A DNA stretch of 64,000 bases, taken from positions 47,050,429 to 47,114,428 of the forward strand of contig OZ038393.1 in NCBI GenBank assembly GCA_964036045.1, in the 5' to 3' direction. Position 1 is the first letter of the stretch, and each line of letters starts with the position of its first letter. This DNA is from Eutreptiella sp. 'Long Island Sound 2002' (Eukaryota > Euglenozoa > Euglenophyceae > Eutreptiales > Eutreptiaceae). Below the pieces are notes generated by a model. That model made no database searches, was not told the DNA's origin, and saw only the letters and a program-made list of their open reading frames with translations. The position numbers and the translations under genes are program-made. Shown here piece after piece: positions 25,806 through 49,529 of the stretch.

Positions 25806-25889
25806 TCCAAATTGAGATCCAAATCAAATTGACGGCGTCAAAGATTGATCCCGAATGTTGATCTCCCTGCCACTCAGCTGGCTACCACC

Positions 25890-29170: not shown

Positions 29171-29409
29171 TTGCTTTTCAAAAGATATCGCTACTGGACC
29201 GACCATTTTGTATGCTATTTTCGCCAAATAAACATTCAAATCGTACTGTACCGATTTCGTTCCTTTAATTTAGCATGTCCATGTGCGTTTTGTATGTGAG
29301 CGGCCTTACCTCCCAACTGAAGACGACCACATTTGGAATCAGCGGCTTTCGGTGATCATTTTAAACATGTTGCTGTTTTGGGACGTGCTGAAGCGGTACC
29401 CAGAACCCC

Positions 29410-30009
29410 ATGGCCAGGTTACGGCATACAACCGGTCTCCGGTCCACTAACCCCATGTACGGCGTGTTCCGTGCCGTGAAGCCCCGCATCGGCAACCGAT
29501 GCACCGCCAGCGGAGATTTGTATATCAGAATGTCAGGAATCAACAGGGTTTTATTTTCATATTGTTTCCGTCAATTTTTACGCTTCCGTTCTGATACTCA
29601 CTGTTTTGACTGCTGGCGGTTGGCTCGCGACTTTACCGTAACCGCCAGTTTAACTGTTTATAATGGAAATTTTAACGCAATCCGTCACGAAGGCTCCAAA
29701 GTCGCCAGGAACTGCATGGATGCTTCCGCAATTTTCATAATTAATACTCGCAACCTCAATCCGAATTTTTCAGGATGTCGAAATCGGATTTTCGACTTCG
29801 ACATCCCCGCACTTGATTTGACCTCCATCGAGTGGACCTACGTGCTTCCCTATGCACGAATCAACTTCCCCTTTATCTTGCCCTCCATTTGTCTTAAAGA
29901 TATGGGCAAAACAAAGTTGATTCGTGAGGCCACTTGTGAAGGTCATATCTCGTGCCGCTTGCGAGTATTGACTATAAGGAAACGTGGGATGTATTCACAA
30001 TACTCCTGA
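29410..30009 (+). CDS. LTR-internal ORF, element B 5' LTR (199 aa)
   Basis: An ATG 21 nt into the LTR opens the same frame as the 234-codon ORF of element A LTRs. It ends early because CCGA in element A reads CTGA here. No known domain. See the element A copy for description. It may be only an open stretch of U3. Confidence 0.25.
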   Translation: MARLRHTTGLRSTNPMYGVFRAVKPRIGNRCTASGDLYIRMSGINRVLFSYCFRQFLRFRSDTHCFDCWRLARDFTVTASLTVYNGNFNAIRHEGSKVARNCMDASAIFIINTRNLNPNFSGCRNRIFDFDIPALDLTSIEWTYVLPYARINFPFILPSICLKDMGKTKLIREATCEGHISCRLRVLTIRKRGMYSQYS

Positions 30010-31401
30010 CGTAATTTAGGAAGCTTTATATGCCTTGCGTTTCCACACGTGCGCGCTAGTGTAATGGATCATGGTCAAGAGGGTAGAGTTTGCGTTACAA
30101 CTCATTGACCATGACATTGCGTGCGTTGAGATAACTTTCGAGTGTAGCGCGCAAGTGTTGGTGTTGCATAGGAACTCTCCTTGAGTTCCTATGAGCGATT
30201 GACACAAAGTTATGCCCTTGGAGGGGCATGACATATCGTGGTGGGAGCTACCTTTTTGGGTAATATGTGGTATGTGCCATGTGTTGTGTTGCGTGCCCAT
30301 TTGGCGGGTCCATTGCTCCAAGACAAGCCCGCCAATGGACCTCATATTGTGCAAGCCCCTTCTCCACACTCCCTACTGTCAATTGCAAGCCTAACCTTCG
30401 TGAAGGGAAGCTTGTGTGGTGAACCCGAAGCGATGCGTTGGGAGCAGGGTGTGTATTTTGGAATTTTCCATATTTTCATGTGCCCACTTGGGAAGCAGCG
30501 CTCGTAACCTTTCAAGGCGCCCCAAGTGGAGCACATATGTGGGTCATTGGTGTCAAGTCATTGTGTTCAGAAGGATTAAGTGATTGCACGATCCAAGCCG
30601 AAGATATTATAATATAATTATGCACCTTTCAAGGCACTTTTGTGTGTCATTGTGCCAATTTTGCCATTTTTGGCTCGTCATGATGTCAAGTGGCGACTGT
30701 GTACCTCAACGTTGCGCTCAATTGACATCATGACCCAAGTATGTTATGAGGGTACATACTTCGGTAGCCAACATATCTTGGACCCGGCGAATAACTCCTC
30801 TTAGGCTTGGCATACCGTGGCCGCCATGTTGGCGATTTGGGACTATCCCAAATCATGGGCTCACTTGGCGACCCTGCCATTCCCAATACCAGAGGAGTTG
30901 GGCGACGCCCAAAAGATATGTTGGACCAACATGACTTGATACCAATCTTATGGCACACTCCGGTCCGAGTCGGGCATGTGCCTCATTTGCCTTAACCATG
31001 AGTGTGCGCATTTTTGGCCATTTTGAGCAATTTTCCACTTTTGCTGCCCGCCGTGCACTATGTTCTAACCCTCGTGCACGCCGGACGCATGGACCAATGG
31101 ACCATATATGACATGGGTGTTATGGGTAATGGTCCCCATGGTCCACACACCACGTGGGCGAAGCGGAGCCGCCTTCGTTAAGGCGCTAGGCCAAATTGAG
31201 TATGGGCATTTTTGCCATTTGGGCATTTGTGGACCCAATTGGGATCGTCACCACGCCAGGCAGCATGGAAATCTATGAGAGCCAAAAGCATGGGAGTCTC
31301 TGTTGGACTCCGGGCGGATCGTGTATGGAATGGCGGATCCGATCTCCAAGCCGGCGTGGAGATATACTATTGGGAGCACACCGAATTTTGGCTCATTGCA
31401 A

Positions 31402-31405
31402 GCAG
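31402..31405. repeat. Target site duplication GCAG, left of element A
   Basis: GCAG ends the first part of LTR B and recurs at 48,594-48,597 before LTR B resumes. Because the base before the right copy is A (shared with the LTR end), a 5-bp AGCAG duplication with an LTR ending in GTC cannot be excluded. Confidence 0.85.
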
Positions 31406-31426
31406 TGAAGCGGTACCCAGAACCCC

Positions 31427-32131
31427 ATGGCCAGGTTACGGCATACAACCGGTCTCCGGTCCACTAACCCCATGTACGGCGTGTTCCGTGCCGTGAAGCC
31501 CCGCATCGGCAACCGATGCACCGCCAGCGGAGATTTGTATATCAGAATGTCAGGAATCAACAGGGTTTTATTTTCATATTGTTTCCGTCAATTTTTACGC
31601 TTCCGTTCTGATATTCACTATTTTGACTGCTGGCGGTTGGTTCGCGACTTTACCGTAACCGCCAGTTTAACTGTTTATAATGGAAATTTTAACGCTATCC
31701 GCGACGAGGGCTCCAAAGTCGCCAGGAACTGCATGGATGCTTCCGCAATTTTCATAATCAATACTCGCAACCTTAATCCGAATTTTTCAGGATGTCGAAA
31801 TCGGATTTTCGACTTCGACATCCCCGCACTTGATTTGACCTCCATCGAGTGGACCTACGTGCTTCCGTATACACGAATCAACTTCCCTTTTATCCTGCCC
31901 TCCATTTGTCTTAAAGATATGGGCAAAACAAAGTTGATTCGTGAGGCCACTTGTAAAGGTCATATCTCGTGTTGCTTGCGAGTATTGACGATAAGGAAAC
32001 GTGGGATGTATTCACAATACTCCCGACGTAATTTAGGAAGCTTTATATGCCTTGCGTTTCCACACATGCGCGCTAGTGTAATGGATCATGGTCAAGAGGG
32101 TAGAGTTTGCGTTATAACTCTTTGGCCATGA
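31427..32131 (+). CDS. LTR-internal ORF, 234 aa, unknown
   Basis: This ATG frame starts MARLRHTTGLRSTNPMYGVF and runs 234 codons. It includes FDCWRLVRDFTVTASLTVYN, DASAIFIINTRNLNPNFSGC and EWTYVLPYTRINFPFILPSI, which have natural hydrophobic/aromatic content. The same frame is open in both LTRs of element A and carries one stop in each LTR of B. Differences between the A and B types are mostly amino-acid changing (T/I, C/Y, A/V, H/D, E/K, R/C), which does not support purifying selection. No domain recognised. If translated, it would need a transcript starting upstream of the LTR. Confidence 0.3.
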   Translation: MARLRHTTGLRSTNPMYGVFRAVKPRIGNRCTASGDLYIRMSGINRVLFSYCFRQFLRFRSDIHYFDCWRLVRDFTVTASLTVYNGNFNAIRDEGSKVARNCMDASAIFIINTRNLNPNFSGCRNRIFDFDIPALDLTSIEWTYVLPYTRINFPFILPSICLKDMGKTKLIREATCKGHISCCLRVLTIRKRGMYSQYSRRNLGSFICLAFPHMRASVMDHGQEGRVCVITLWP

Positions 32132-34228
32132 TGTTGCGTGCGTTAAGATAACTTTCGAGTGTAGCGCGCAAGTGTTGGTGTTGCATAGGAACTCTCCTTG
32201 AGTTCCTATGAGCGATTGACACAAAGTTGTGCCCTTGGAGGGGCATGACATATCATGGTGGGAGCCACCTTTTGGGGCAATATGGAGTATGTGCCTTGTG
32301 TTGTGTTGCGTGCCCATTTGGCGGGTCCATTACTCCAAGCCAAGCCCGCCAATGGACCTCATATTGTGTGAGCCCCTTCTCCATACTCCCTACGATCAAT
32401 TGCAAGCCTAACCTTCGTGAAGGGAAGCTTGTGTGGTGATCCCGAAGCGATGCGTTGGGAGCAAGGTGTGTGTTTTACAATTTTCCATATTTTCGTGTGC
32501 CCAGGTGGGAAGCAGCGCTCGTATCCTTTCAAGGCGCCCCAAGTGGAGCACATATGTGGGATCGAAGGTTATTGGTGTCAAGTCATTGTATGTAGAAGGA
32601 TTAGTCGATTGCACGATCCAAGCCAAAGATATTATAATATAATTATGCGCCTTTCAAGGCACTTTGGTTTATCTTTTTGCCAATTTTGCCATTTTTGGCT
32701 CGTCATGATGTCAAGTGGCGACCGTGCATCTCAACGTTGCGCTCAATTGACATCATGACCCAAGTATGTTATGGGGGTACATACTTCGGTAGCCAACATA
32801 TCTTGGACCCGGCGAATAACTCCTCTTAGGCTTGGCATACCGTGGCCGCCATGTTGGCGATTTGGGACTATCCCAAATCATGGGCTCACTTGGCGACCCT
32901 GCCATTCCCAATACCGGAGGAGTTGGGCGACGCCCCAAAGATATGTTGGACATATATGACTTGATACCAGTCCTATGGCACACTCCGGTCCGAGTCGGGC
33001 ATGTGCCTCATTTGCCCCAACCATGAGTGTGCGCAATTTTGGCCATTTTGAGCATTTTTCCACTTTTGCTGCCCGCCGTGCACTATGTTCTAACCCTCGT
33101 GCACGCCGGACGCATGGACCAATGGACCATATATGACATGGGTGTTATGGGTAATGGTCCCCATGGTCCACACACCACGTGGGCGAAGCGGAGCCGCCTT
33201 CGTTAAGGCGCTAGGCCAAATTGAGTATGGGCAATTTTGCCATTTTTGCATTTGTGGACCCAATTGGGATCGTCACCACGCCAAGCAGCATGGAGATCTA
33301 TGAGAGCCAAGGGCATGGGAGTCTCCGTTGGACTCCCGGTAGATCACGTATGGAATGCTGGATCCGATCTCCAAGCCGGCGTGGAGATATACTATTGGGA
33401 GCACACTGAATTTTGGCTCATTTCAAGCAGCCAAAATGACCCAATTTTGGGACCCCAATTTCCCCCTCCGTGTGGTCAATTGGCGGCCCCACTTCTCTAA
33501 GCCCATAGGGAGCCCGGACCCAAATCTAAGTTGTACACTCAGATATAAGTCCTAGGTCCTGCCTCCTACCCTGTGAGCCATTGGCCTTACCTTGGCCGGG
33601 CGAGCCACGCGTGGGAATGACGCCAATTTTGGTGATTTTGGCATCATGACCCCACTTGACTCATCCGTGTTGCCCTGATGCCGGGACCTCAGAGAGAACC
33701 AGGTTGGGTGAGGGCTCCAGGGAGTTCGTACTCGAAGGGCATAGGGTCAGTTGCCTCGTCCCTACCTCTGGCCGGTCCGGACGAGGGGTCAATTTTGGAG
33801 TTTTTCAAGCTAATTTCAGTTTGGGCTGAAACAGCCCATTTTCAGCTACCAACTCCTGGGTGATAATGGCGGGGCCATATCTCCGGCTCAGAGTGGAGTT
33901 CGGACCCGCCGTTAGAGGAGCATGGGGAGCCACTGTTGGTTGGCCTTGGAGCCCTCTTGGTACCCAGGAACTCGCCTGTGGCTGGGCGGGACACCTTCCT
34001 TATGGGCAGGGTTTCAGGGTCCGGACTGAGCAGGGCATGGGTTGTGTTTGAGCCCCCGCCCCCATCAGCCACTGAGAGGGTCGGACCTGGGATTGGGATA
34101 TGAGTTGGGACTGAGTGTCTATGGTCCTGTGATGCCCTTACCCCAGTCCAGTCTTAACCCCATGTGTACATATCCTGATGTGTTGCTGTACATACTTTCG
34201 TTCCCTCTTTGCAGAGTGGCAAGGATTC

Positions 34229-34239
34229 TGAAACGCTTT
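34229..34239 (+). promoter_or_regulatory. Predicted transcript 5' end / self-primer (TGAAACGCTTT), element A
   Basis: This 11-mer is the exact reverse complement of the 11 nt directly after the LTR (34,352-34,362). In Tf1-type chromoviruses the first 11 nt of the RNA fold back onto the primer site and are cut to prime reverse transcription. That would put the transcription start at 34,229, leaving a 123-nt R-U5 region. A weak TATA-like TACATACTT lies about 35-40 bp upstream. The same 11-mer is at 48,471-48,481 and, in element B, at 49,396-49,406. Confidence 0.6.
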
Positions 34240-34351
34240 GTCACATGACACAGGCGTATTGATGCCCTTGTGAGCGTAGTGCCTTGCCTGCCTGCTCACC
34301 TGTGCGTGTCACCGCAGCGTCCCGTGGCCGGCCCCCCACGGGAACGCGTCA

Positions 34352-34362
34352 AAAGCGTTTCA
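34352..34362 (+). promoter_or_regulatory. Predicted primer binding site AAAGCGTTTCA, element A
   Basis: The first 11 internal bases after the 5' LTR. They lack the TGG that a tRNA-CCA primer site would start with, and pair perfectly with 34,229-34,239. Conserved in element B at 49,519-49,529. Confidence 0.6.
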
Positions 34363-34802
34363 CCGCCGCGGGGTTACCCAACCCTCGCGTGCCACTCGGG
34401 GCCACCAACCCCGAGCAGCGCGTCGCAGCAGCGCGGCGCAGCTCGCAGCTCGCAGCGCAGCGCAGCGTCTCGCAGCGCAGCGCAGCAGCTCGCAGCGCCA
34501 CTCAGCGACAGCGCCGAGTTCGTCACGGAGCCCGCAGCGCCGTCCAGAGCATCGTCCTGACCGCGCAGCGCCCGTGGAAGAGGTGCACAGACCAGGACTC
34601 CTGCATCGGCCCCATCGGCCGACCCGGAGTCCCAACGGCCGACCAGCAAGGCCGCGTCAACCACCTCCACAACCACCGGCTGACCAGCACCAGCCGCACT
34701 TCCAATCCAGTGCTGCAGCACCCTCCTCAACAACCACAACCAGTTCGTTGAGTTGAACGAGTGCACATCAAGGACTTCAAGATCATCTACGCCCCCGCTG
34801 CC
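34352..34802 (+). other. Gag leader of element A
   Basis: About 450 bp of leader. Positions about 34,415-34,500 are a degenerate CAGCG/CAGCT tandem array. The rest is Pro/Gln-codon-rich but has no ATG frame leading into gag. The gag frame is open upstream only to a GTG at 34,761. Confidence 0.6.
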
Positions 34803-37800
34803 ATGGTGAATTGGCAGGAAGCGGGCAGGACGTGGCCGCGGCCCCACCCCCATGCAGCACGCCTGCTGCGTGGGTTGGTTTGGGACCAGCATTACCGCCA
34901 CAGCAACCCCCAGTGCGAAGGGGGCATGCCCAGGAGCTTCGAGCTCCGCACGGACATCGCCCCCGACCGCCTGCAGGCCGTGGAGGACTGGCTGCGGGCG
35001 GAGGGGTACGAGTACCGCCACCAGCAGAGGCGCTGGAGGGCGTGGACCCGGCCGGACAGGCCCGGCGAAGGGCTGCGCACCGACGGGATCGAGGAGGACG
35101 AGGACCCCAACGCCTACCCGTCGGGCGCCTCGATCAACGTCTCCCTGTGGGACGTGATCGAGAAGAAGTTCCCGGAACCGGGAAGCGAGCGCAGGCTGCA
35201 GGGCAGCAGCAGCGCGTCTCCGGGGACGGAGAAGCGGTCCGCCGGGGACAAGAAGAGGGACCGGAGGTGGCGGGAGTACCAGGAGTCCCTGGCTGCCGAA
35301 GCCGCCCAAGGCGCCAAGGGCGGAACCCCAGCCCCCAGTCCCCAACGGCCCAATGGTGGACACCACCCCGGCTCCACCACCCTTGGCGACTACATCCAAG
35401 TCGCCAAGCAGGCCCAGGCCAAACCCCGTCCGCTGCTCCTGAGGGCCCGGCAGGCCTCAGCAGGCCCCAGCAGCGACATCGAGTCGGCCCACCGCGGGAG
35501 GACGCCGGCCGACCAGGCCAGCTCCAGCAGCAGCGTCGCTCCCGAAAGGGACGTGGCACGCGCCTGTGAGCGCGCCTGTGGGGTGCCCTGCAACCGTCGG
35601 GTTGCCCGGCAACGGGCCAAGCAGTACAGCGCTGCTGTGGAGGGCGCCGCCGGCATCGCCCAGGAGGAAGCTGCGCAGTGGGCGCATGGCATGGCCATCC
35701 ACACCCAGACCGTGGCGGCCATTGCGGCTGGACTCACGCCCGTGGCCGCCCATGGGGTAGCGACTGCCCAGGTCAACGGTGAGTTGGCGGCAGCCGACGA
35801 GGAAGCCCGCCTGACGCAGGAGGCCATTGCCTGCAAGGAGGCCGAGGTGAAGGCGCTGGGGGGGGCGCTTGCCCAAGAGAGGGCAAAAAAGGAGGCGGAG
35901 GAAAGGGCCCACGCCGAAGCGACGGCTAAGGCCCATGAGGATGCCGCCAAGAAGGAAGCCATCGAGGCCGCGCGACGGAAGGTCGCTGAGGAGAAGGCCA
36001 AGACGGAGGCGGAGCTGGCGGCGTTGGAGGCGCAGAAGGCGCAGCTGCTGCAGGCCCGGGAGACCGAGGCGGCTTGTGCTCGGGAAGAGGCCGAAGCGCG
36101 AGCTGCCGCAGCCACCGCCGCCGCAATGGAGGAGGCAGAGGCCAAACTCCGCCACGAGACTCCCCCGGGAGGATCGCGAGTGGAGACCCTTCGAAGGCTT
36201 TTCGAAGGGGACGCCTCCTCCAGGATGAAGCTGGATGAGGCGGACACGGGCAGCAGTGGGAGCGGTAGCACCACCGCCCGTCGCCGGAGGAAGGGCAAGG
36301 GGAAGACCCCCGAGAGGCCGCGGAGGCCAGCGGGTGGGCACCCCCACGACAGTGACCCCTTCTTCACCGCCAGTGACGGGGATGAACGAGGCCGTCGACA
36401 TCGCCAAGTGGTGGCTTGGACGGGCGGAAGTGGCGGAGACGTCCCCATGGAAGGTGAGGATGAGGATCCCCCTCCTCCCTACCGGAGCTCCGAGTCCTCC
36501 GTGACCGAGACGCCCAGGTGGGGCGACATGGACGAGGATGACGACATGGACTTCGGCATCACGAGGAGGCGCCCATCCTCGGACCCACCGAGGCGACCCG
36601 GCGGAGACCCACCGGGACCCCCTGGCGGAGGACCTTCAGGACCCCCTGGAGGACGCCCACCAAGTGGACCCCCTGGAGGCGGACCACCGGGCGGGGGAGG
36701 ACCCCCTGGACCGGGCGGACCCGGCGGAGGCCCTCCTGGAGGACCCCCTGGGGACCCCGGCGACCCACCAGGGAACGGTGTCCCGGATGCCACCTGGCGG
36801 TGGATTGTCTACCTCCGCAGGAGAGTCCAGTTGCTCGAGCTGGAGGTAGACACGGGCAAGAGCGAGATGGCTCGCATCTCCACGGTCGCCGCGCGCGCGC
36901 AGAAGGACTTGGACATCGCCAGGGCCGAGACCAAGTCGCTGACCAACGTCGTCAGCGGCCTGCAGGAGAGGCTGGATGCGCTGGAAGCCCGTGGGAGAGT
37001 CGGCAGCGACCACCCACCCCTGGAGTCAGGCTCGTCGGACGACGGCTGGGGACCCGGACCAGGTCCAGGCAGACCCCACGCCCCCCGCGGAGCCCCCAGG
37101 AGTCGCCCCAGCGCCAGTGCCCCCTCTCTCACCGCCCCCTCTCACCACAGCGCGGGCCGCCGCAACGAGCGCGTGCCGCCCGGCAGTGGCAGTGAGGAAT
37201 GGCGCGATGAGTGGCTCAGCGCGGACTACCACAACCGCCATGCTCCACCGCGGACGCCTGTACGCCCCCGACGCCCGCCACCAGCCCCGGTGCCAATCCC
37301 CAGGGCTGGAGGACGTTATGGTGGACTCAGGGATGAGGTCCCCAGAGGAGACGTGGAGTGGGATGTCGGCGAAGGTGAGGACCTGGACCTGGACCTGGAC
37401 CTGGAGGAGTTCAACATCAGCCCGCCGCGTGGTGTACGACGGGAGGCCGCTGAACGCAGCCGCCGGCGCCGTGATGAGGATGCGTACATGGATGCAGTAC
37501 GGCGTGAACATTTTGGTTCAGCGTACGTGGAGGAACCGCGGCGTAGCCACAGGGACTCCATGGAGGAGATGGACGTAGCGGCCGTGGGAGTCCGTGGGCG
37601 AGGGCGATGGGAACCTCGGTCGACCTCGCGGCCGGCGTTCATGGTCTCTAAGGCCGCGGACGCCGCCGTGTGGGAAGACTTGAAGGACATCAAGCCTCCC
37701 ATGTACGATGGCAACCCCCTCAACCTCGACCGCTTCTTGGAGAAGCTGGACGATTGGGGGCTGGCCGTCACTGAAGACCAACCTCCCGCGGATGCGGAGA

Positions 37801-39131
37801 GATATGTCTTCAAACGGTTCAGGTACCGCCTGCCGGAAGTGCTCGGCGAGCTATACTTCGTGGCGACCAAGGAGGGGAAAATCAAGACCCTCAAGGACGC
37901 CAAGAAGTGGCTTAACGAGCAGGAGCGGGTGGACGCTCCGCAGGTGGCTGCCAAGCGCTGGAAGTCCATCAAGCTTGAGCATGATGGACGGGAGATCCGC
38001 CTGCGAGAGTGGCGAGACTTCCGAGGGAAATACACCCTCTTCCGCCGCAATGTGGAGGATTGGAACGAGGGTGACGAGCAGGCTCGCCTGCTCTCCATGC
38101 TACCGGAAGCATGGATCAAGAGGGTCACCAAGGAGGAATCCAAGAGGGCCAAGTCCAACCACACGGTCAAGATGATGCTCCCCAAGGAGTATCATACGAA
38201 CGTGGTGAGTTGGGCGAAGAAGAACGTGGCCCGGGATGTCAAACGGCACTCCCTGCGGAACGCTCTTCTCATCACCGTCTCGGGCGATCGCGAGAAGACC
38301 GCGATCTGGCGCCTTGACGATTGTGAGTTGAGCGGCCAGACCATCCGTCTGCAGCCCATCCCGGCGCGGATGAGCTGCGACGAGATCCTGGAGTGGGTTG
38401 GCGAGGAAGTACTCAAGGAGTACCGAAACCTCCACCACACCCGCGGGTTGAGGCCCGGCGACCGCGACGTCAACTACGTTGGCGAGGGACCTGGCGGGGA
38501 AGACGCCATGGACCCAGCGGGAGCCGGCGGCGATGAGACTCTCGTCGACGATGACGACGACGATGAGCCCGCCGAAGTGGCCGTGTGTGCCTTCGTGGCC
38601 AAGAACCTGAGCGCGGGGACCAAGCCAGCAAACTGGAAGCCCCTGCAGCAAGGCTGGAGGAAGCAGGAGAAGAGGGACCCTCGCCGCATTGGCGACCCTC
38701 CGCTGTCCTTTGGAAAGTTCATACGAGCTCACCCTCAGGGCTGTTTCGTGTGTTATGGGAGGAAGAAAGGCTTCAACCATGACCACCGAACATGCCCCGT
38801 CCACAAGGCCGACACGGAGGCTTACAAGAAGGCGCACGGGTCGAAGAAGCGTGCGCCTGCGGGTATCCGGGAAGCCAAAATGGAGGTCGACAAGGACGAG
38901 CTGGCCAAGCTGATGTCGTCGGTGGGGACCGAGTTGGCCAAGGAGATCCAGGAGATCAAGCGGAACTGGGTCCCCAGGTCGGACAACAAGAACAAGGAGA
39001 ACAACCAGAATGACCAGAACAAGGACAAGGACAAGAAGGGTAAAGGAGGAGGTAAAGGGAGAAGAAAGAAGGGCGTCAACGACGTTGAGGCCGAGGAGCA
39101 CACCCCCTCTTCCACAACCGACGCCCCCTAG
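34803..39131 (+). CDS. gag: Gag polyprotein of element A
   Basis: 1442 aa from the first ATG (34,803), very long for a Gag. The N-terminal part is Trp/Arg-rich (RWRAWTRPDRPGEGLR). An Ala/Glu/Lys-rich coiled coil lies at about 35.62-36.15 kb. A Pro/Gly repeat of PPGGGPSGPPGGRPP type follows at 36.58-36.77 kb, and a second heptad-like segment (RRRVQLLELEVDTGKSEMA) at 36.80-36.98 kb. The capsid-like part (YDGNPLNLDRFLEKLDDWGL, YTLFRRNVEDWNEGDEQARL) lies at 37.66-38.13 kb. A zinc-knuckle variant C-X2-C-X8-H-X4-C (CFVCYGRKKGFNHDHRTC) is at 38,742-38,795. The C-terminus is Lys/Asn/Asp-rich. It forms the particle and binds element RNA in relatives. It ends in a UAG followed in frame by pol. Confidence 0.92.
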   Translation: MVNWQEAGRTWPRPHPHAARLLRGLVWDQHYRHSNPQCEGGMPRSFELRTDIAPDRLQAVEDWLRAEGYEYRHQQRRWRAWTRPDRPGEGLRTDGIEEDEDPNAYPSGASINVSLWDVIEKKFPEPGSERRLQGSSSASPGTEKRSAGDKKRDRRWREYQESLAAEAAQGAKGGTPAPSPQRPNGGHHPGSTTLGDYIQVAKQAQAKPRPLLLRARQASAGPSSDIESAHRGRTPADQASSSSSVAPERDVARACERACGVPCNRRVARQRAKQYSAAVEGAAGIAQEEAAQWAHGMAIHTQTVAAIAAGLTPVAAHGVATAQVNGELAAADEEARLTQEAIACKEAEVKALGGALAQERAKKEAEERAHAEATAKAHEDAAKKEAIEAARRKVAEEKAKTEAELAALEAQKAQLLQARETEAACAREEAEARAAAATAAAMEEAEAKLRHETPPGGSRVETLRRLFEGDASSRMKLDEADTGSSGSGSTTARRRRKGKGKTPERPRRPAGGHPHDSDPFFTASDGDERGRRHRQVVAWTGGSGGDVPMEGEDEDPPPPYRSSESSVTETPRWGDMDEDDDMDFGITRRRPSSDPPRRPGGDPPGPPGGGPSGPPGGRPPSGPPGGGPPGGGGPPGPGGPGGGPPGGPPGDPGDPPGNGVPDATWRWIVYLRRRVQLLELEVDTGKSEMARISTVAARAQKDLDIARAETKSLTNVVSGLQERLDALEARGRVGSDHPPLESGSSDDGWGPGPGPGRPHAPRGAPRSRPSASAPSLTAPSHHSAGRRNERVPPGSGSEEWRDEWLSADYHNRHAPPRTPVRPRRPPPAPVPIPRAGGRYGGLRDEVPRGDVEWDVGEGEDLDLDLDLEEFNISPPRGVRREAAERSRRRRDEDAYMDAVRREHFGSAYVEEPRRSHRDSMEEMDVAAVGVRGRGRWEPRSTSRPAFMVSKAADAAVWEDLKDIKPPMYDGNPLNLDRFLEKLDDWGLAVTEDQPPADAERYVFKRFRYRLPEVLGELYFVATKEGKIKTLKDAKKWLNEQERVDAPQVAAKRWKSIKLEHDGREIRLREWRDFRGKYTLFRRNVEDWNEGDEQARLLSMLPEAWIKRVTKEESKRAKSNHTVKMMLPKEYHTNVVSWAKKNVARDVKRHSLRNALLITVSGDREKTAIWRLDDCELSGQTIRLQPIPARMSCDEILEWVGEEVLKEYRNLHHTRGLRPGDRDVNYVGEGPGGEDAMDPAGAGGDETLVDDDDDDEPAEVAVCAFVAKNLSAGTKPANWKPLQQGWRKQEKRDPRRIGDPPLSFGKFIRAHPQGCFVCYGRKKGFNHDHRTCPVHKADTEAYKKAHGSKKRAPAGIREAKMEVDKDELAKLMSSVGTELAKEIQEIKRNWVPRSDNKNKENNQNDQNKDKDKKGKGGGKGRRKKGVNDVEAEEHTPSSTTDAP

Positions 39132-39164
39132 CGGAGCCCCTGCAGCCAAGGGCCCCAGCTAGGG
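39126..39164 (+). promoter_or_regulatory. Gag-pol UAG readthrough junction, element A
   Basis: The gag stop TAG (39,129-39,131) is followed in the same frame by open codons through the whole of pol. CCCTAGC (39,126-39,132) can pair with GCTAGGG (39,158-39,164), so the stop could sit in a 7-bp stem with a 25-nt loop. The identical arrangement occurs in element B. Readthrough of a single stop makes Gag-Pol in murine leukaemia-type retroviruses; its use here is inferred. Confidence 0.65.
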
Positions 39165-42100
39165 CGGTCGCAGGATGGTGACGTGGGAAGCGCCGATCCA
39201 TCCCAGTCGGGAGTCGATAAGCACAAGGGGACTGCCGCGGGCGGAAGGCCCGGTCAGGCGCCCAGTCGCGGAGGCGGGGTGAGGGCAAGTGAGGGCACGA
39301 ACCGTTGCACCCGTCCGTCCTTCGCGACCAAGAACGTGTTTGATGTACTACAGGATCTATCCGAGAGTATCGGAGGATCACCCGGACCGCAGCTGGATGC
39401 TGCAGATGGGCAGCCTGAGCCCATTGTCCACGACCTGCACCAGTCGCTTGTGGAGCTTCTGGAACGGCCGGAGATCCTGAGTTTGCACGCCGTGCGCCGT
39501 GTCGGTCGCGAGCGGCAGTTGCATCTTAAGGTCCGTGCCTTATGCGGAGAAGTGGAAAAGGTTTTCGACGTGTTGGTCGACACGGGAGCTCAAGTCAGCT
39601 TGGTCAAGGCTGGCCTGCTTCCGCCAGAGTGTCTTACCGACAGTCGGAAACCTGTCAGGCTGAAGGTGGCGAACGGCCAGTACATGGTGGGAGGCACGAA
39701 GGAAGCGGCCATTGGGCTGCAGTTCGTGAACCATCGTGAACTGAGCCGCCCAGACCTCGGCAAGGAAATCCTCCTGCACGGTAGCTTCTACGAGGCCGAG
39801 ATGGACTGGGACATGATCGTCGGGTACGACTTCATGATGGAGACGGACTCCGGCGTCCTCCCGGCCCAGGCTTCCATGACCCTGTACCAGGACGACCAAC
39901 TCTCGTGGCTTTCGTCACCTGAGCACCATGTGGAATGCCAATGGATCCACCCCGAACGCAATCAGCTCGAAGTGGCCGCGCTGGACACTGAGCCAACTGG
40001 TCCTGCAAACCAGGAGTACGGCGTAAGGCCGGAAGTGGCGAGCCGAGTTGTCGCGGACTTGGGAGCTTCGGATCTGGCCCTGGATGCGTTCTCTTCAGGA
40101 ACCTCCGCCCATCTGCGGGTATGTGAGAAGTACTGGAGCGCCCAGGACTCCGCGTGGAAGAAGCACTGGGGTCCGCATCAGGGATTGATGTGGATCCATT
40201 GCCCCCGTTGGGACATTCCAAGAGCGATAGCGAAGATTCGCAAGGACCGCTCCAAGGCAGTGCTGGTTGTTCCTATGGGATGCACCGAGGAGGAAAGTAC
40301 CCGACATTGGGTAGCCTCATTGACCAACATGACCTTAAACAAGGTCGTCCTACCGGCTGGAGAGAGTGTCTATCAAGACGCTAAGGGACAGCCCATGCCA
40401 CCCCAGAGATGGCCAACAGAATTCCACTATGTGGATGGGGGCCTTGATCAGGCCGACACCACGGACTTCGTGTGTGTCAACCGCATCATAGCAGAGCCGT
40501 GGAGGCAATGCTCTGCGGTTCCCCCTGTTGACATCGAAGAATCGGACTCCGAAGACCCCCTCACTGAAGAGGAGTGGGATCTGGTTCAGGGGTATATGGA
40601 TCAGCCCTTTCACGACTGGGGAAACCAGCGTGAGGGCAAAGGCCAGGACAAAGCCTGGTGGGAAGTGGACTCAATCGTCTCTGGTTCCTATGACGGGGAT
40701 ACCTTCGTACAGAGGGTGCTGGATCACATGTCCAGCCAAGACGAGCCGCCTGGCGGTAACCCACCCACCTACGGCGATCTGTTCCGAGGCAAAACCAGGG
40801 ATGGCCCTTTGGGCCACCTGGGAAGACCACCTGAGCCGAAAGCGAGCGGAGTAGCTACCCCTCAAGTAAGCTCCGTGGTTCAAGTGCCCGGAAAAGCCAA
40901 GGCGGAGTCCGATGACTGCCCCAAGATCCAGGCGTTGAGGGCCAGGCTGAAGCGGAAGTATGGCGAGACCTTCTTCAGCGGAAAGCCTGTGTTCCCCCCA
41001 CCGGTGCGTGGACCGTATGGCGAGGCCAAGATACGACTGAGGCAGGACCCCCGTGTGTATCGTCACCGGGAGTTTGCCCTAAGGGGCGAGAGGAAAGAGG
41101 CCATGGAGAAGATCCTCCGTGACTTCATCCAGAGAGGCTGGCTTGAGCCGTGCCACTCCGAATGGGCCTCTCCTTGCTTCGTCGTCCCCAAGAAGGTTGC
41201 CGGTGAGTGGCGGCTCGTGGTCGACTACCGCGGCCTGAACGCCCAAACGCAGCACGACAGCTATACGCTGCCCCTCATTGAGGATATGCTGCAAAAACAA
41301 CACCGGCGGAGGATCTTCACGGTGATTGACCTGAAACATGGTTATCATCAGATGCCTCTGGCCGAGGAGTCCCGTGCCTGCACAGCCATGAGCACCCCAC
41401 TTGGACCTCTCCAGTGGAAGGTGATGCCCATGGGCGTTACCAACGGTAATGCGGCTTTTCAGCGGATGCTGGAGAACCTGCTTGAGCCGGTGCGCGACTG
41501 TGCGGACCCCTTCGTGGACGACGTGATCATCGCGTCCGGGGACCCCAGCATGAGCTACGAGGAGCTCCTGGAGGCACACGAGAGGGACGTCACTCGAGTG
41601 CTGGACCTTCTGGTCCGGCACAAACTCACGGGCAGCAGTGACAAGGCCACCATTGCGGTAAGCGAGGTGGTCTTCGCTGGCCACGTAGTCGGGAACGGGC
41701 AGCGAAAGCCCATACCTGGCAAGGTGGCTGCGATTGAGCACTGGGAAAAGCCCAAGACGGTCTCTGAGCTACGGGCGTACTTGGGGTTCTGCAATTACTA
41801 CTCGGGGTATATCAAAATGTATGCCGAGTATGCAGCCCCCATGACGACCATGCTCAAGGGCAACCGAGAGGAGACCAAGAAGGGGTCCAAGAAGGCTCTG
41901 GTCTGGACTGAAGAGTCTGACCAGGCCTTTGAGGGGATGAAGCAGGCGCTGCTATCCGCAGTGGGTCTGCACCTCGTGGATCCCGACCGAGGGTTCGTCC
42001 TGCGCACCGACGCTTCCGACTACGCCATTGGGGCTGTGTTGGAGCAAGTGCTTGACGATGGGAGGCACGTGCCCGTGGCCTTCTGGAGCCGAGTCCTGGC

Positions 42101-44153
42101 GGAAGGCCAGAGACGGACGTGGACGCCCCGTGAAAAGGAGGCGTATGCCATCGTCATGGCTCTCAGGAAATGGGCTGGGTACATAGCCCTCCATCCCGTC
42201 ACCGTCTGCACCGACCATCAGAGTCTGCAGTCGTGGCACAAGGAGCACGTGGACACCCCCTCAGGTCCCGCCTCCCGACGGGCAAGATGGCACGAGACCT
42301 TGGCCAAGTTCGACCTTACGGTTGTTTATATTCCTGGAAAGGATAACACCGTGGCGGACTGTCTCAGTAGGTGGGCCTATCCCGCCAGCAAGGGCATGCA
42401 GGATATCTCTGCCCATGGCGATGAGGCTGAGACCGCTGAAGCCAAGAAGATCATTGAAATGGAGCGCCTGATGGAGGAGGAGGGTGCCAAATGCTTCGTC
42501 GTCATGGCCGCAGATGCCCCCCTCGCTTCGAGGGTGAGCAGAGCGGTCGGTGTACTCGCCCCTGTGGGTGCCGCGGGCGGAAGGCCCGGTCCGGCACCCC
42601 CTGTGGGAGTGGAGTCCGACAAGCACCTCTTCCCAGAGTCTTGCCTCCAGGACGACTGGACCGACGATTACGCCAAGTCTGAGGCCTTTGCGGCCGAGTA
42701 TAGGGCTGTGACCGACCCTGACGACGGGCAGAAGTGGCCAAAGGGGCTGACTGAGGAAGATGGCAAGCTCTACCGGAATGGTAAGCTGCTAGTCCCAGAG
42801 TCCCGGGTGCTCGAGCTGTGTGAAGCTTGGCACCACCACATGCTGCACCCAGGGGTCAAGAAGCAAGCTCTTGACATGCAGCGTCGGTTCGAGATCGACC
42901 ATATCGTTCTCTACACCGCCATCAAGAGGGTCAGGAAGGGTTGCTCGGTCTGTCAGGCCTGCAATCCCGACAACCGGAACGTCAAGGGGGAACCCCAATG
43001 GACCCCGGTTCCTGACCAGCCCATGGAGAGCGTGGCCATGGACGTCTTCTCCATGCCCGAAGTGCACATTGGCAAGGAGACCTTTGACTGTGTGGTTCTC
43101 TGTGTGGACCGCCACAGCGGCTACCTTGTAGTCGTTCCGGCACGCAAAAAGGGGTTGCTTGCCAAGGAAGTGGCAGTCATGATGATTCGTCATTGGCTGA
43201 CCGTCTTTGACATCCCCCGCACCATTTGCAGTGACCGAGGGCCCCAGTTTACTGGTGGCTGGTTCAAGGCTATGTGTTCCCTCATGGGAATACGTCATGC
43301 CAAGAGTGTCGCCTATCTCAGCCGGTCTAACGGCCGTGCTGAAGTGGCTGGACGGCAGCTGTTCGAGAAGCTGCGCAAGATCCACATCACCAATCCACGG
43401 CGGAACTGGTTCGAGGAGATGTGGCCTGCTCTCAAGGCCCATCATGACACCCCCACTCCGGGCGGTTTGTCCCCTCACCAGATTCTGTTCGGCAGGGACC
43501 CCCTGGGTAGGGGACTTCCCTTGTCTGGTGATGGCATGGCTATGGATGCCAAGGAGTTCTTCGCGCGGCAAGAGCAAACGGCGCGGGACATCCGCCAGCA
43601 GCTTGAGAAGGAGCATGCTGAGCGTCAGAAGTCCGCCCCGAGCTCGACAGCGCAGAAGTTCAGGGTGGGAGACCCGGTGTGGGTGATCAGACCCCGCCCC
43701 ATGGGCACCCACCGCACCAAAACCTGGTTCACACCCGGCGAGGTGGTCCGCAGGATTGGTGAGGACACCTACCGCATCAAGGTGGGTCACGGACAGTTCC
43801 GGGAGCGCCACGAGAGTCAACTCCGTGTGCGGGAACCCGACCTCCGTGGCCGACATGTGTCCCTGGACTACGCCAAACATGAGGCCGATTCGGACGACGA
43901 CTATGCTGAGCAGGACGACTATACTGTCGAGAAGATCCTGGCTCAGCGTCCGAAGGCCTCGGCACCCGGAGGTCTGGAGTTCAAGGTTCGTTGGCGAGGC
44001 TATGGGCCGTCCCACGACACCTGGGAACCCGTCTCCTCGTTCGTGCCGCGGGTCAATACTCCCTTCATGGAGTACATCCGCAAGCACAAGACCAAGATCC
44101 ACGTTTCGGACTTGGCAGCACTCACCCGGGCGATTGCAGCCAGGGGTGCCTGA
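39132..44153 (+). CDS. pol: Pol polyprotein of element A (PR-RT-RH-IN-chromodomain)
   Basis: Read on from the gag UAG, about 1673 aa. There is no ATG near the start; the first start-like codon is a GTG at 39,183, which favours a Gag-Pol fusion. Protease: VLVDTGAQVSLV (DTGA at 39,579-39,590). RT: LVVDYRGLNAQ, TVIDLKHGYHQMPL and catalytic FVDD (41,511-41,522). RNase H: LRTDASDYAIGAVL and KDNTVADCLSR. Integrase: HHCC with GCSVCQAC, then D (43,041), D in CSDRGPQFTGG (43,233) and E in GRAEVAG (43,341), a D-X35-E spacing. The chromodomain YTVEKILAQRP...FKVRWRGYGPSHDTWEP lies at about 43.92-44.09 kb, with all key aromatics kept. Compared with element B it has one extra 39-bp segment at 42,569-42,607. 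Confidence 0.95.
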   Translation, partial: RSPCSQGPQLGRSQDGDVGSADPSQSGVDKHKGTAAGGRPGQAPSRGGGVRASEGTNRCTRPSFATKNVFDVLQDLSESIGGSPGPQLDAADGQPEPIVHDLHQSLVELLERPEILSLHAVRRVGRERQLHLKVRALCGEVEKVFDVLVDTGAQVSLVKAGLLPPECLTDSRKPVRLKVANGQYMVGGTKEAAIGLQFVNHRELSRPDLGKEILLHGSFYEAEMDWDMIVGYDFMMETDSGVLPAQASMTLYQDDQLSWLSSPEHHVECQWIHPERNQLEVAALDTEPTGPANQEYGVRPEVASRVVADLGASDLALDAFSSGTSAHLRVCEKYWSAQDSAWKKHWGPHQGLMWIHCPRWDIPRAIAKIRKDRSKAVLVVPMGCTEEESTRHWVASLTNMTLNKVVLPAGESVYQDAKGQPMPPQRWPTEFHYVDGGLDQADTTDFVCVNRIIAEPWRQCSAVPPVDIEESDSEDPLTEEEWDLVQGYMDQPFHDWGNQREGKGQDKAWWEVDSIVSGSYDGDTFVQRVLDHMSSQDEPPGGNPPTYGDLFRGKTRDGPLGHLGRPPEPKASGVATPQVSSVVQVPGKAKAESDDCPKIQALRARLKRKYGETFFSGKPVFPPPVRGPYGEAKIRLRQDPRVYRHREFALRGERKEAMEKILRDFIQRGWLEPCHSEWASPCFVVPKKVAGEWRLVVDYRGLNAQTQHDSYTLPLIEDMLQKQHRRRIFTVIDLKHGYHQMPLAEESRACTAMSTPLGPLQWKVMPMGVTNGNAAFQRMLENLLEPVRDCADPFVDDVIIASGDPSMSYEELLEAHERDVTRVLDLLVRHKLTGSSDKATIAVSEVVFAGHVVGNGQRKPIPGKVAAIEHWEKPKTVSELRAYLGFCNYYSGYIKMYAEYAAPMTTMLKGNREETKKGSKKALVWTEESDQAFEGMKQALLSAVGLHLVDPDRGFVLRTDASDYAIGAVLEQVLDDGRHVPVAFWSRVLAEGQRRTWTPREKEAYAIVMALRKWAGYIALHPVTVCTDHQSLQSWHKEHVDTPSGPASRRARWHETLAKFDLTVVYIPGKDNTVADCLSRWAYPASKGMQDISAHGDEAETAEAKKIIEMERLMEEEGAKCFVVMAADAPLASRVSRAVGVLAPVGAAGGRPGPAPPVGVESDKHLFPESCLQDDWTDDYAKSEAFAAEYRAVTDPDDGQKWPKGLTEEDGKLYRNGKLLVPESRVLELCEAWHHHMLHPGVKKQALDMQRRFEIDHIVLYTAIKRVRKGCSVCQACNPDNRNVKGEPQWTPVPDQPMESVAMDVFSMPEVHIGKETFDCVVLCVDRHSGYLVVVPARKKGLLAKEVAVMMIRHWLTVFDIPRTICSDRGPQFTGGWFKAMCSLMGIRHAKSVAYLSRSNGRAEVAGRQLFEKLRKIHITNPRRNWFEEMWPALKAHHDTPTPGGLSPHQILFGRDPLGRGLPLSGDGMAMDAKEFFARQEQTARDIRQQLEKEHAERQKSAPSSTAQKFRVGDPVWVIRPRPMGTHRTKTWFTPGEVVRRIGEDTYRIKVGHGQFRERHESQLRVREPDLRGRHVSLDYAKHEADSDDDYAEQDDYTVEKILAQRPKASAPGGLEFKVRWRGYGPSHDTWEPVSSFVPRVNTPFMEYIRKHKTKIHVSDLAALTRAIAARGA
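42569..42607 (+). repeat. 39-bp templated insertion in pol of element A
   Basis: Absent from element B. Its first 29 nt match 39,233-39,261 at the start of pol with 2 mismatches (and 54,394-54,422 of element B with 1). The insert is flanked by CCCCTGTGGG at 42,559-42,568 and 42,598-42,607. It keeps the frame, adding 13 residues between RNase H and integrase. Confidence 0.8.
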
Positions 44154-45637: not shown

Positions 45638-45648
45638 AAGGAGGGGGG
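45638..45648 (+). promoter_or_regulatory. Polypurine tract AAGGAGGGGGG, element A
   Basis: An uninterrupted purine run directly before the 3' LTR TG. It would prime plus-strand DNA. The same run is at 60,841-60,851 in element B. Confidence 0.85.
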
Positions 45649-48593
45649 TGAAGCGGTACCCAGAACCCCATGGCCAGGTTACGGCATACAACCGGTCTCC
45701 GGTCCACTAACCCCATGTACGGCGTGTTCCGTGCCGTGAAGCCCCGCATCGGCAACCGATGCACCGCCAGCGGAGATTTGTATATCAGAATGTCAGGAAT
45801 CAACAGGGTTTTATTTTCATATTGTTTCCGTCAATTTTTACGCTTCCGTTCTGATATTCACTATTTTGACTGCTGGCGGTTGGTTCGCGACTTTACCGTA
45901 ACCGCCAGTTTAACTGTTTCTAATGGAAATTTTAACGCTATCCGCGACGAGGGCTCCAAAGTCGCCAGGAACTGCATGGATGCTTCCGCAATTTTCATAA
46001 TCAATACTCGCAACCTTAATCCGAATTTTTCAGGATGTCGAAATCGGATTTTCGACTTCGACATCCCCGCACTTGATTTGACCTCTTTCGAGTGGACCTA
46101 CGTGCTTCCGTATACACGAATCAACTTCCCTTTTATCCTGCCCTCCATTTGTCTTAAAGATATGGGCAAAACAAAGTTGATTCGTGAGGCCACTTGTAAA
46201 GGTCATATCTCGTGTTGCTTGCGAGTATTGACGATAAGGAAACGCGGGATGTATTCACAATACTCCCGACGTAATTTAGGAAGCTTTATATGCCTTGCGT
46301 TTCCACACATGCGCGCTAGTGTAATGGATCATGGTCAAGAGGGTAGAGTTTGCGTTATAACTCTTTGGCCATGATGTTGCGTGCGTTAAGATAACTTTCG
46401 AGTGTAGCGCGCAAGTGTTGGTGTTGCATAGGAACTCTCCTTGAGTTCCTATGAGCGATTGACACAAAGTTGTGCCCTTGGAGGGGCATGACATATCATG
46501 GTGGGAGCCACCTTTTGGGGCAATATGGAGTATGTGCCTTGTGTTGTGTTGCGTGCCCATTTGGCGGGTCCATTACTCCAAGCCAAGCCCGCCAATGGAC
46601 CTCATATTGTGTGAGCCCCTTCTCCATACTCCCTACGGTCAATTGCAAGCCTAACCTTCGTGAAGGGAAGCTTGTGTGGTGATCCCGAAGCGATGCGTTG
46701 GGAGCAAGGTGTGTGTTTTACAATTTTCCATATTTTCGTGTGCCCACTTGGGAAGCAGCGCTCGTATCCTTTCAAGGCGCCCCAAGTGGAGCACATATGT
46801 GGGATCGGAGATTATTGGTGTCAAGTCATTGTATGTAGAAGGATTAGTCGATTGCACGATCCAAGCCAAAGATATTATAATATAATTCTGCGCCTTTCAA
46901 GGCACTTTGGTTTATCTTTTTGCCAATTTTGCCATTTTTGGCTCTTCATGATGTCAAGTGGCGACCGTGCATCTCAACGTTGCGCTCAATTGACATCATG
47001 ACCCAAGTATGTTATGAGGGTACATACTTCGGTAGCCAACATATCTTGGACCCGGCGAATAACTCCTCTTAGGCTTGGCATACCGTGGCCGCCATGTTGG
47101 CGATTTGGGACTATCCCAAATCATGGGCTCACTTGGCGACCCTGCCATTCCCAATACCGGAGGAGTTGGGCGACGCCCCAAAGATATGTTGGACATATAT
47201 GACTTGATACCAATCCTATGGCACACTCCGGTCCGACTCGGGCATGTGCCTCATTTGCCCCAACCATGAGTGTGCGCAATTTTGGCCATTTTGAGCATTT
47301 TTCCACTTTTGCTGCCCGCCGTGCACTATGTTCTAACCCTCGTGCACGCCGGACGCATGGACCAATGGACCATATATGACATGGGTGTTATGGGTAATGG
47401 TCCCCATGGTCCACACACCACGTGGGCGAAGCGGAGCCGCCTTCGTTAAGGCGCTAGGCCAAATTGAGTATGGGCAATTTTGCCATTTTTGCATTTGTGG
47501 ACCCAATTGGGATCGTCACCACGCCAAGCAGCATGGAGATCTTTGAGAGCCAAGGGCATGGGAGTCTCTGTTGGACTCCCGGTGGATCAGGTATGGAATG
47601 CCGGATCCCATCTCCAAGCCGGCGTGGAGATATACTATTGGGAGCACACTGAATTTTGGCTCATTTCAAGCAGCCAAAATGACCCAATTTTGGGACCCCA
47701 ATTTCCCCCTCCGTGTGGTCAATTGGCGGCCCCACTTCTCTAAGCCCATAAGGAGCCCGGACCTAAATCCAAGTTGTACACTCAGATATAAGTCCTAGGT
47801 CCTGCCTCCCACCCTGTGAGCCATTGGCCTTACCTTGGCCGGGCGAGCCACGCGTGGGAATGACGCCAATTTTGGTGATTTTGGCATCATGACCCCACTT
47901 GACTCATCCGTGTTGCCCTGATGCCGGGACCTCAGAGGGAACCAGGTTGGGTGAGGGCTCCAGGGAGTTCGTACTCGAAGGGCATAGGGTCAGTTGCCTC
48001 GTCCCTACCTCTGGCGGGTCCGGACGAGGGGTCAATTTTGGAGTTTTTCAAGCTAATTTCAGTTTGGGCTGAAACAGCCCATTTTCAGCTACCAACTCCT
48101 GGGTGATAATGGCGGGGCCATATCTCCGGCTCAGAGTGGAGTTGGGACCCGCCGTTAAGGGAGCATAGGGAGCCACTGTTGGTTGACCTTGGAGCCCCTT
48201 GGTTTCGAGGAACTCGCCTGTGGCTGGGCGGGACACCTTCCTTATGGGCAGGGTTTCAGGGTCCGGACTGAGCAGGGCATGGGTTGTGTTTGAGCCCCCG
48301 CCCCCATCAGCCACTGAGAGGGTCGGACCTGGGATTGGGATATGAGTTGGGACTGAGTGTCTATGGTCCTGTGATGCCCTTACCCCAGTCCAGTCTTAAC
48401 CCCATGTGTACATATCCTGATGTGTTGCTGTACATACTTTCGTTCCCTCTTTGCAGAGTGGCAAGGATTCTGAAACGCTTTGTCACATGACACAGGCGTA
48501 TTGATGCCCTTGTGAGCGTAGTGCCTTGCCTGCCTGCTCACCTGTGCGTGTCACCGCAGCGTCCCGTGGCCGGCCCCCCACGGGAACGCGTCA
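45649..48593 (+). repeat. 3' LTR of element A
   Basis: Pairs with 31,406-34,351 by shared variants such as GATATTCACTATTTTGAC. Ends ACGCGTCA, after which GCAG and the rest of LTR B follow. Hairpin copy at 46,427-46,453. Confidence 0.93.
45670..46374 (+). CDS. LTR-internal ORF, element A 3' LTR (234 aa)
   Basis: Second open copy of the LTR frame, differing from 31,427-32,131 at a few residues (for example Y to S and I to F). No domain recognised. A transcript entering this LTR from the element would contain it upstream of the poly(A) site. Confidence 0.3.
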   Translation: MARLRHTTGLRSTNPMYGVFRAVKPRIGNRCTASGDLYIRMSGINRVLFSYCFRQFLRFRSDIHYFDCWRLVRDFTVTASLTVSNGNFNAIRDEGSKVARNCMDASAIFIINTRNLNPNFSGCRNRIFDFDIPALDLTSFEWTYVLPYTRINFPFILPSICLKDMGKTKLIREATCKGHISCCLRVLTIRKRGMYSQYSRRNLGSFICLAFPHMRASVMDHGQEGRVCVITLWP

Positions 48594-48597
48594 GCAG
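48594..48597. repeat. Target site duplication GCAG, right of element A
   Basis: Matches 31,402-31,405. Confidence 0.85.
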
Positions 48598-49518
48598 CCA
48601 AAATGACCCAATTTTGGGACCCCAATTTCCCCCTTCCGTGTGGTCAATTGGCGGCCCCATTTATCTAAGCCCATAGGGAGCCCGGACCCAAATCCAAGTT
48701 GTACACTCAGATAGAAGTCCTAGATCCGGCCTCCTGCCCTGTGAGCCATTGGCCTTACCTTGGCCGGGCGAGCCACGCGTGGGAATGACGCCAATTTTGG
48801 TGATTTTGGCATCATGACCCCACTTGACTCATCCGTGTTGCCCTGATGCCGGGACCTCAGAGGGAACCAGGTTGGGTGAGGGCTCCAGGGGGTTCGTACT
48901 CGAAGGGCAGAGGGTCAGTAGCCTCGTCCCTACCTCTGGCGGGTCCGGACGAGGGGTCAATTTTGGGGATTTTTGAGTTAATTTCAGTTTGGGCTGAAAC
49001 AGCCCATTTTCAGCTACCAACTCCTGGGTGATAATGGCGGGGCCATATCTCTGGCTCAGAGTGGAGTTGGGACCTGCCATTAGAGGAGCATGGGGAGCCA
49101 CTGTCGGTTGGCCTTGGGGCTGCTTGGTACCCAGGAACTCGCCTGTGGCTGGGCGGGACACCCCCCCTATTGGCAGGGTTTCAGGGTCCGGACTGAGCAG
49201 GGCATGGGTTGTGTTTGAGCCCCCGCCCCCATCAGCCACTGAGAGGGTCGGACCTGGGATTGGGATATGAGTTGGGACTGAGTGTCTATGGTCCTGTGAT
49301 GCCCTTACCCCAGTCCAGTCCTTACCCCATGTGTACATATCCTGATGTGTTGCTGTACATACTTTCGTTCCCTCTTTGCAGAGTGGCAAGGATTCTGAAA
49401 CGCTTTGTCACATGACACAGGCGTATTGATGCCCTTGTGAGCGTAGTGCCTTGCCTGCCTGCTCACCTGTGCGTGTCACCGCAGCGTCCCGTGGCCGGCC
49501 CCCCACGGGAACGCGTCA
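48598..49518 (+). repeat. 5' LTR of element B, second part
   Basis: Resumes with CCAAAATGACCC exactly where LTR B was broken at 31,405, and ends ACGGGAACGCGTCA. Together with the first part it totals 2938 bp, matching the intact LTRs of element A. Confidence 0.93.
49396..49406 (+). promoter_or_regulatory. Predicted transcript 5' end / self-primer, element B
   Basis: TGAAACGCTTT, exact reverse complement of the primer site at 49,519-49,529, in the same relative place as in element A. Confidence 0.6.
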
Positions 49519-49529
49519 AAAGCGTTTCA
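49519..49529 (+). promoter_or_regulatory. Predicted primer binding site, element B
   Basis: AAAGCGTTTCA directly after the 5' LTR, conserved with element A. Confidence 0.6.

What the first reader, a model, noticed from the sequence alone, without database searches (positions are those of the whole stretch)
34229..34362. Self-priming signal: LTR 11-mer complementary to the primer site
TGAAACGCTTT (34,229-34,239) is the exact reverse complement of AAAGCGTTTCA, the first 11 internal bases (34,352-34,362). The pair is conserved in element B (49,396-49,406 with 49,519-49,529). The primer site lacks the TGG needed for a tRNA primer. Tf1 and related chromoviruses prime reverse transcription with the first 11 nt of their own RNA. 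An 11-nt match by chance in a 3-kb LTR is unlikely, and its place near the LTR end is where a transcript start is expected. It predicts a start at 34,229.
Basis: partly seen in the sequence, partly recalled or inferred. Interest (0 to 1): 0.75.

Follow-up and report, generated by a model that had tools for sequence, protein, structure and literature searches.

The report
Retrotransposon that likely primes itself
The start of this jumping element's RNA is predicted to fold back onto the site where copying into DNA begins and to serve as its own primer; a diverged branch of the family changed both partners in step, which supports this known but uncommon mechanism.

Summary
TGAAACGCTTT (34229-34239) is the reverse complement of the first 11 internal bases of element A (34352-34362); element B has the same pair. 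The LTR is 2946 bp and ends CA at 34351; the match is exactly 11 bp and flush with it, and no TGG lies in the first 40 internal bases. Chance is low: 16 of 20,000 shuffled LTRs hold the 11-mer. The genome has 4870 exact pairs at this spacing (reversed control 0). A diverged subfamily has two changes in the LTR 11-mer, TAGAACGCTTT, and its primer site has the two matching ones: 53 matched pairs against 3 mismatched combinations. The duplex closes a folded 123-nt leader. Within the main subfamily 0 of 15 fetched variant primer sites were compensated, as expected for decay after insertion. Best reading: Tf1-type self-primed reverse transcription in a 17-kb chromodomain Ty3 element.

The parts
31406..34351 (+). 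5' LTR of element A (2946 bp, TG...CA)
   Evidence: 98.8% identical to 45649-48593; boundaries from TSD GCAG, TG/CA ends and PPT
34215..34228 (+). conserved block AGTGGCAAGGATTC directly upstream of the 11-mer, preceded by a pyrimidine-rich run ending CAG (34190-34214); promoter element or transcribed, not resolved
   Evidence: non-consensus fraction 0.01-0.04 at 13 of its 14 positions and 0.50 at one T/C position (-2) in 70 copies, one row (L100) misplaced; kept as AGTGGCAAGGATCC in the diverged copy L121
34229..34239 (+). putative self-primer TGAAACGCTTT, predicted first 11 nt of the RNA
   Evidence: exact complement of the primer site; covaries with it
34270..34299 (+). hairpin in R-U5 of the predicted leader
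   Evidence: single-sequence fold and consensus fold
34317..34347 (+). U5 hairpin GCGTCCCGTGG / CCACGGGAACGC just before the primer site
   Evidence: single-sequence fold; weaker in the consensus fold
34352..34362 (+). primer site AAAGCGTTTCA, first 11 internal bases of A
34761..39131 (+). gag-like ORF, 1456 aa, no Pfam family
39183..44153 (+). pol ORF: protease (weak), weak Dam-like domain, RT, RNase H, integrase, chromodomain
45638..45648 (+). polypurine tract AAGGAGGGGGG before the 3' LTR of A
45649..48593 (+). 3' LTR of element A; second copy of the 11-mer at 48471-48481
29389..31405 (+). first part of the 5' LTR of element B, interrupted by insertion of A
48594..49518 (+). rest of the 5' LTR of element B
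49396..49406 (+). self-primer 11-mer of element B
49519..49529 (+). primer site of element B

Best explanation
A and B are Ty3-type LTR retrotransposons with a chromodomain that start reverse transcription with their own RNA, as described for Tf1 of fission yeast. Transcription is inferred to start at 34229. The first 11 nt fold back over a structured leader (112 nt between the two 11-mers) and pair with the 11 nt that follow the 5' LTR. RNase H is inferred to cut after nt 11, leaving a 3' end flush with the LTR boundary that primes minus-strand DNA. Plus-strand synthesis then copies the attached 11-nt RNA, so the new primer site is a copy of the primer, which keeps the two in register. Shown here: exact complementarity, its position and its double-sided covariation. 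Predicted: the fold. Inferred: the start site, the cut and the priming.
For: Exact 11-bp match flush with the LTR end in A and B. 4870 exact pairs genome-wide, reversed-pattern control 0. Subfamily with TAGAACGCTTT / AAAGCGTTCTA: 53 places, control 0; both mismatched combinations together 3. Slid-register controls show no double-sided change, 14 cells in register (rows were chosen as paired, so only the register contrast counts). No TGG in the first 40 internal bases of A or B, while the distant Ty3 element D in the same window has TGG 2 nt after its LTR and at most 5 nt of LTR complementarity from its first five internal positions. The 11-bp duplex closes the MFE leader fold, z -3.39, 1 of 200 shuffles as stable, and is in the MFE of 33 of 34 distinct copies (copies chosen by exact pair) and of the 8 second-subfamily leaders folded, of 22 printed in full. 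Length, position and leader logic match self-primed Tf1/sushi elements as described in passages of PMC10085805 and PMC4600332.
Against: No RNA data. 0 of 15 fetched copies with an altered primer site carry the matching LTR change. The covariation may be one ancestral change: 16 of the 53 places are near-identical members of a cluster on C2. In the column-shuffle control the number of pairs with a change on both sides (2) was reached by 267 of 500 shuffles, though paired cells and covariation score were reached by 0 of 500. The 14 nt upstream are about as conserved as the 11-mer, so the start could lie upstream. A three-duplex 'pretzel' is not clearly resolved. One copy (L011) does not form the duplex in its MFE.
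Confidence: 0.85

Rival explanations
1. A host RNA, most likely an internal tRNA fragment as in half-tRNA primed elements, pairs with the primer site; the LTR match is secondary.
For: Half-tRNA primers exist in some Ty1/copia lineages (PMC6317226, passages). No host tRNA set could be examined.
Against: No TGG within 40 nt. It does not explain why the LTR 11-mer changes in step with the primer site.
Confidence: 0.05
2. The two 11-mers form a conserved RNA stem for packaging, dimerisation or translation, and priming uses something else.
For: The leader is strongly folded and covariation supports an RNA duplex, whatever its use.
Against: The 3' arm lies exactly at the primer-site position, flush with the LTR, at exactly 11 nt, and no TGG-type primer site is visible.
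Confidence: 0.06
3. Self-priming from an internal 11-mer: the transcript starts upstream, for example after the CAG at 34214, and is cut or carries a 5' flap. This is a variant of self-priming and overlaps with the best explanation.
For: Conserved AGTGGCAAGGATYC block and upstream pyrimidine-CAG.
Against: A flap would be copied into the primer site during plus-strand synthesis, yet complementarity stops at exactly 11 nt (C opposite C at the next position). This argument is inference from the cycle as recalled.
Confidence: 0.15
4. Chance or descent: the pair arose once and is carried along without function.
For: Copies are related; within-subfamily variants are not compensated.
Against: 16 of 20,000 shuffles; two-position change on both sides, 53 against 3.
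Confidence: 0.03

Closest known systems
Tf1/Tf2 of Schizosaccharomyces pombe and related Tf1/sushi chromoviruses (Tj1, Tosmo elements)
   Same: Self-primer in the LTR complementary to the site right after the CA of the 5' LTR, chromodomain Ty3 element, folded leader (papers seen as passages; the 11-nt primer length of Tf1 is recalled).
   Different: LTR of 2946 bp, gag-like ORF of 1456 aa and pol ORF of 1656 aa, weak Dam-like domain between protease and RT; clade placement not tested.
Tcn1-clade chromoviruses of mosses and club mosses
   Same: Chromodomain elements of which the majority lack tRNA sites and are predicted to self-prime (PMC6317226, passages).
   Different: SM-Tcn1 of Selaginella showed neither a tRNA site nor self-priming (PMC2864245, passages) and has 440-bp LTRs.
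Skipper chromoviruses of dictyostelids
   Same: Chromodomain elements; most lack TGG at the primer site.
   Different: No LTR complement to the primer region was found in them (PMC5006619, passages); here it is exact.

Membership tests
Self-primed LTR retrotransposons (Tf1 type) | LTR segment complementary to the site directly downstream of the 5' LTR | tested here: met
   11 of 11, offset 0, in A and B
Self-primed LTR retrotransposons (Tf1 type) | no tRNA 3'-end site | tested here: met
   no TGG in the first 40 internal bases
Self-primed LTR retrotransposons (Tf1 type) | complementarity maintained by covariation | tested here: met
   53 matched against 3 mismatched for the two-change subfamily; not seen in 15 decayed copies of the main subfamily
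[quoted passage not shown]
   no transcript data
Self-primed LTR retrotransposons (Tf1 type) | RNase H cleavage after the primer | not testable with these tools
   needs biochemistry
Self-primed LTR retrotransposons (Tf1 type) | three-duplex 'pretzel' leader | tested here: inconclusive
   central duplex and a U5 hairpin predicted; a downstream-of-site duplex of -19.4 kcal/mol competes with the hairpin
Chromoviruses (Ty3 with chromodomain) | RT, RNase H, integrase, C-terminal chromodomain | tested here: met
   PF00078, PF17917, PF17919, PF00385 above their cut-offs; rve 27.9 bits, below its cut-off of 32.6
Tf1/sushi clade | phylogenetic position of RT-RH-IN | not tested
   no reference sequences of the clade at hand

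The most novel reading that the evidence does not exclude
Self-priming is used by a lineage of giant, high-copy chromoviruses outside the Tf1/sushi clade, in a host that is neither fungus, vertebrate nor land plant, and the copying of the primer into the primer site at each cycle drives concerted change of the two.
Probability: 0.3. Interest if true: 0.6.

Novelty: new member of a known kind. Interest (0 to 1): 0.5.

Why it matters
Self-priming was first demonstrated for Tf1 and has been implicated or predicted in other elements since (PMC4600332 and PMC6317226, passages). Here thousands of copies and a subfamily changed on both sides give a natural test of the model, including its prediction that the primer site inherits the primer's sequence. 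It adds a large, abundant element to the self-primed group.

Tried and rejected
tRNA primer: no TGG, but the genome pattern for the 11-mer upstream of a tRNA T-arm did not complete, so a half-tRNA is not excluded. Dinoflagellate host: suspected from related proteins with methyltransferase domains; disfavoured because the dinoflagellate spliced leader (21-base pattern recalled) has 0 exact matches. Relatives in viral contigs: none confirmed of 36 pattern hits. DNA search with 34200-34420 gave nothing because common words are skipped; it is not evidence of rarity. Within-family compensation: I found by eye 17 variant primer sites in the listing (about 100 of 4408 places listed, not counted by script); 15 were fetched and none is compensated; the other two are L067 and L069, a G-U wobble. 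The many repeated blocks of the window are not separate units: they resolve into A inserted in the 5' LTR of B. Searches for related families by protein (P0015 many times, P0098 once), for LEAFY as a host marker (once) and for primer-side variants (once) did not complete.

Full report
Setting. The window is G000:C16:47050429-47114428 of an unnamed 2.28-Gb assembly. Self-comparison and boundary reading give: element A, 5' LTR 31406-34351, internal 34352-45648, 3' LTR 45649-48593, polypurine tract AAGGAGGGGGG before the 3' LTR, 4-bp target duplication GCAG. A lies inside the 5' LTR of element B (29389-31405 plus 48594-49518); B continues at 49519 and its 3' LTR starts at 60852 and is cut off at 62469. 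A encodes a 1456-aa gag-like ORF without Pfam match and a 1656-aa pol ORF with RT, RNase H, integrase (below its cut-off) and a chromodomain. It is a chromodomain Ty3 element.

Observation. The 11-mer and its complement are exactly where stated, in A and B. The match starts at the first internal base and is 11 bp long, no more: the next bases on either side do not pair. Shuffling the LTR gives the 11-mer in 16 of 20,000 trials, and in its last 250 bp in 5 of 20,000. In the window as a whole 61 of 63,689 positions have an 11-mer complement within the preceding 250 bp, 43 of them inside the LTRs, so one pair alone would be suggestive only.

Genome-wide test. The exact pair with 98-125 nt between the 11-mers occurs at 4870 places; the pattern read backwards at 0. 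An anchor inside the leader, chosen without regard to the 11-mers, occurs 5791 + 5831 times. I examined the first 70 places listed, all on contig C1: the LTR 11-mer is exact in 66; 35 copies have the primer site, exact in 31; 29 of 35 pair perfectly, 4 with one G-U wobble, 2 with mismatches. Of the 35 copies without the primer site (3' or solo LTRs), 30 end GCGTCA, 2 end GTGTCA and 3 have no recognised end, which confirms the LTR end. Neighbouring positions are about as conserved, so conservation alone does not single out the 11-mers.

Covariation. Among variant primer sites of the main subfamily 0 of 15 fetched copies have the matching change in the LTR; these look like mutations after insertion. 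One LTR of the 70 (L100, longer stretch L121) belonged to a diverged subfamily, 77% identical to A over 228 aligned columns, with the 11-mer TAGAACGCTTT. The model predicts the primer site AAAGCGTTCTA. That pair exists at 53 places, reversed control 0. The 50 places that were listed lie on ten numbered contigs; 16 of them are near-identical members of a cluster on C2 with an otherwise strongly changed leader. The mixed combinations, both kinds covered by one search because each is the reverse complement of the other, total 3. A Fisher test gives p between 3e-122 and 9e-122, by how the 3 are split, but copies are related and this is not a probability of independent events; the change may have happened once. 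It is still two positions changed on both sides, G-C to A-U and A-U to G-C, in a leader with other changes and length differences. Those 17 aligned rows were selected as paired, so their 100% pairing is by construction. In that count the column shuffles reach the observed number of double-sided pairs in 267 of 500 trials, but the paired percentage and covariation score in 0 of 500, and no slid register shows a double-sided change.

Structure. In the predicted leader of A the 11-bp duplex closes a multibranch fold, -64.2 kcal/mol, z -3.39, 1 of 200 shuffles as stable. It is in the MFE of 33 of 34 distinct copies (36 copies chosen by exact pair) and of all 8 second-subfamily leaders folded, two of them from the C2 cluster, out of 22 printed in full. 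A U5 hairpin precedes the primer site. A competing duplex between the sequence after the primer site and the U5 arm (-19.4 kcal/mol) would give the three-duplex 'pretzel' described for Tf1-type RNAs (PMC10085805, passages), but the data do not choose between them.

Alternatives. No TGG occurs in the first 40 internal bases of A or B; element D, a distant Ty3 element (31% over 330 aligned residues of RT/RNase H) on the minus strand of this window, has TGG 2 nt after its LTR and no LTR complement above 5 nt, a useful contrast. An internal tRNA fragment remains possible since no host tRNA set could be searched. The transcript start is inferred. The block AGTGGCAAGGATYC directly upstream, behind a pyrimidine-rich stretch ending CAG, is very conserved apart from one T/C position and could be a core promoter or transcribed. 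The exact 11-nt limit argues for a start at 34229, because any extra 5' RNA on the primer would be copied into the primer site; this is inference from the Tf1 cycle as I recall it.

Known context. Self-priming was first demonstrated for Tf1 and reported or predicted for related chromoviruses (PMC4600332 and PMC10085805, passages), and predicted for 12% of plant LTR elements surveyed, the Tcn1 and TAR lineages being named (PMC6317226, passages). Skipper of dictyostelids mostly lacks TGG and also lacks an LTR complement (PMC5006619, passages). In searches of the held library for self-priming with retrotransposon, sushi, chromovirus, protist or alga terms no listed title or abstract start describes this element; I saw passages of five of the listed papers, not whole texts. 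Clade membership in Tf1/sushi was not tested.

Verdict. It is a new, well-supported member of a known mechanism class; what could raise it is a position outside the Tf1/sushi clade or direct mapping of the primer.

Noticed in passing
29389-49518: Element A is inserted inside the 5' LTR of element B; the repeated blocks resolve into this nesting.
   Followed up: yes
15488-26163 (- strand): Element D: a distant Ty3 element with 274-bp LTRs (91% identical) and a TGG-type primer site, RT/RNase H fragments at 21627-23094.
   Followed up: partly
7740-12953 (- strand): LINE-like ORF with endonuclease-type (below cut-off) and RT domains.
   Followed up: no
pol ORF 39183-44153, residues about 299-382: Weak Dam-like methyltransferase match between protease and RT (E 0.02, below cut-off); a relative, P0027, matches at 4.4e-9. 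The NPPF motif of P0027 is not kept in A.
   Followed up: partly
34190-34228: Pyrimidine-rich run ending CAG followed by a highly conserved 14-nt block, right before the predicted transcript start.
   Followed up: partly
G000:C2 6.59-7.52 Mb and 11.12-12.21 Mb: 16 near-identical copies of the second-subfamily leader spaced about 94-235 kb apart within the two stretches, possibly a large segmental array.
   Followed up: no
LTR ends of L036-L105: Insertion sites favour NTAN: TA at positions 2-3 after the LTR end in 16 of 32 copies without a primer site and with a recognised LTR end.
   Followed up: partly
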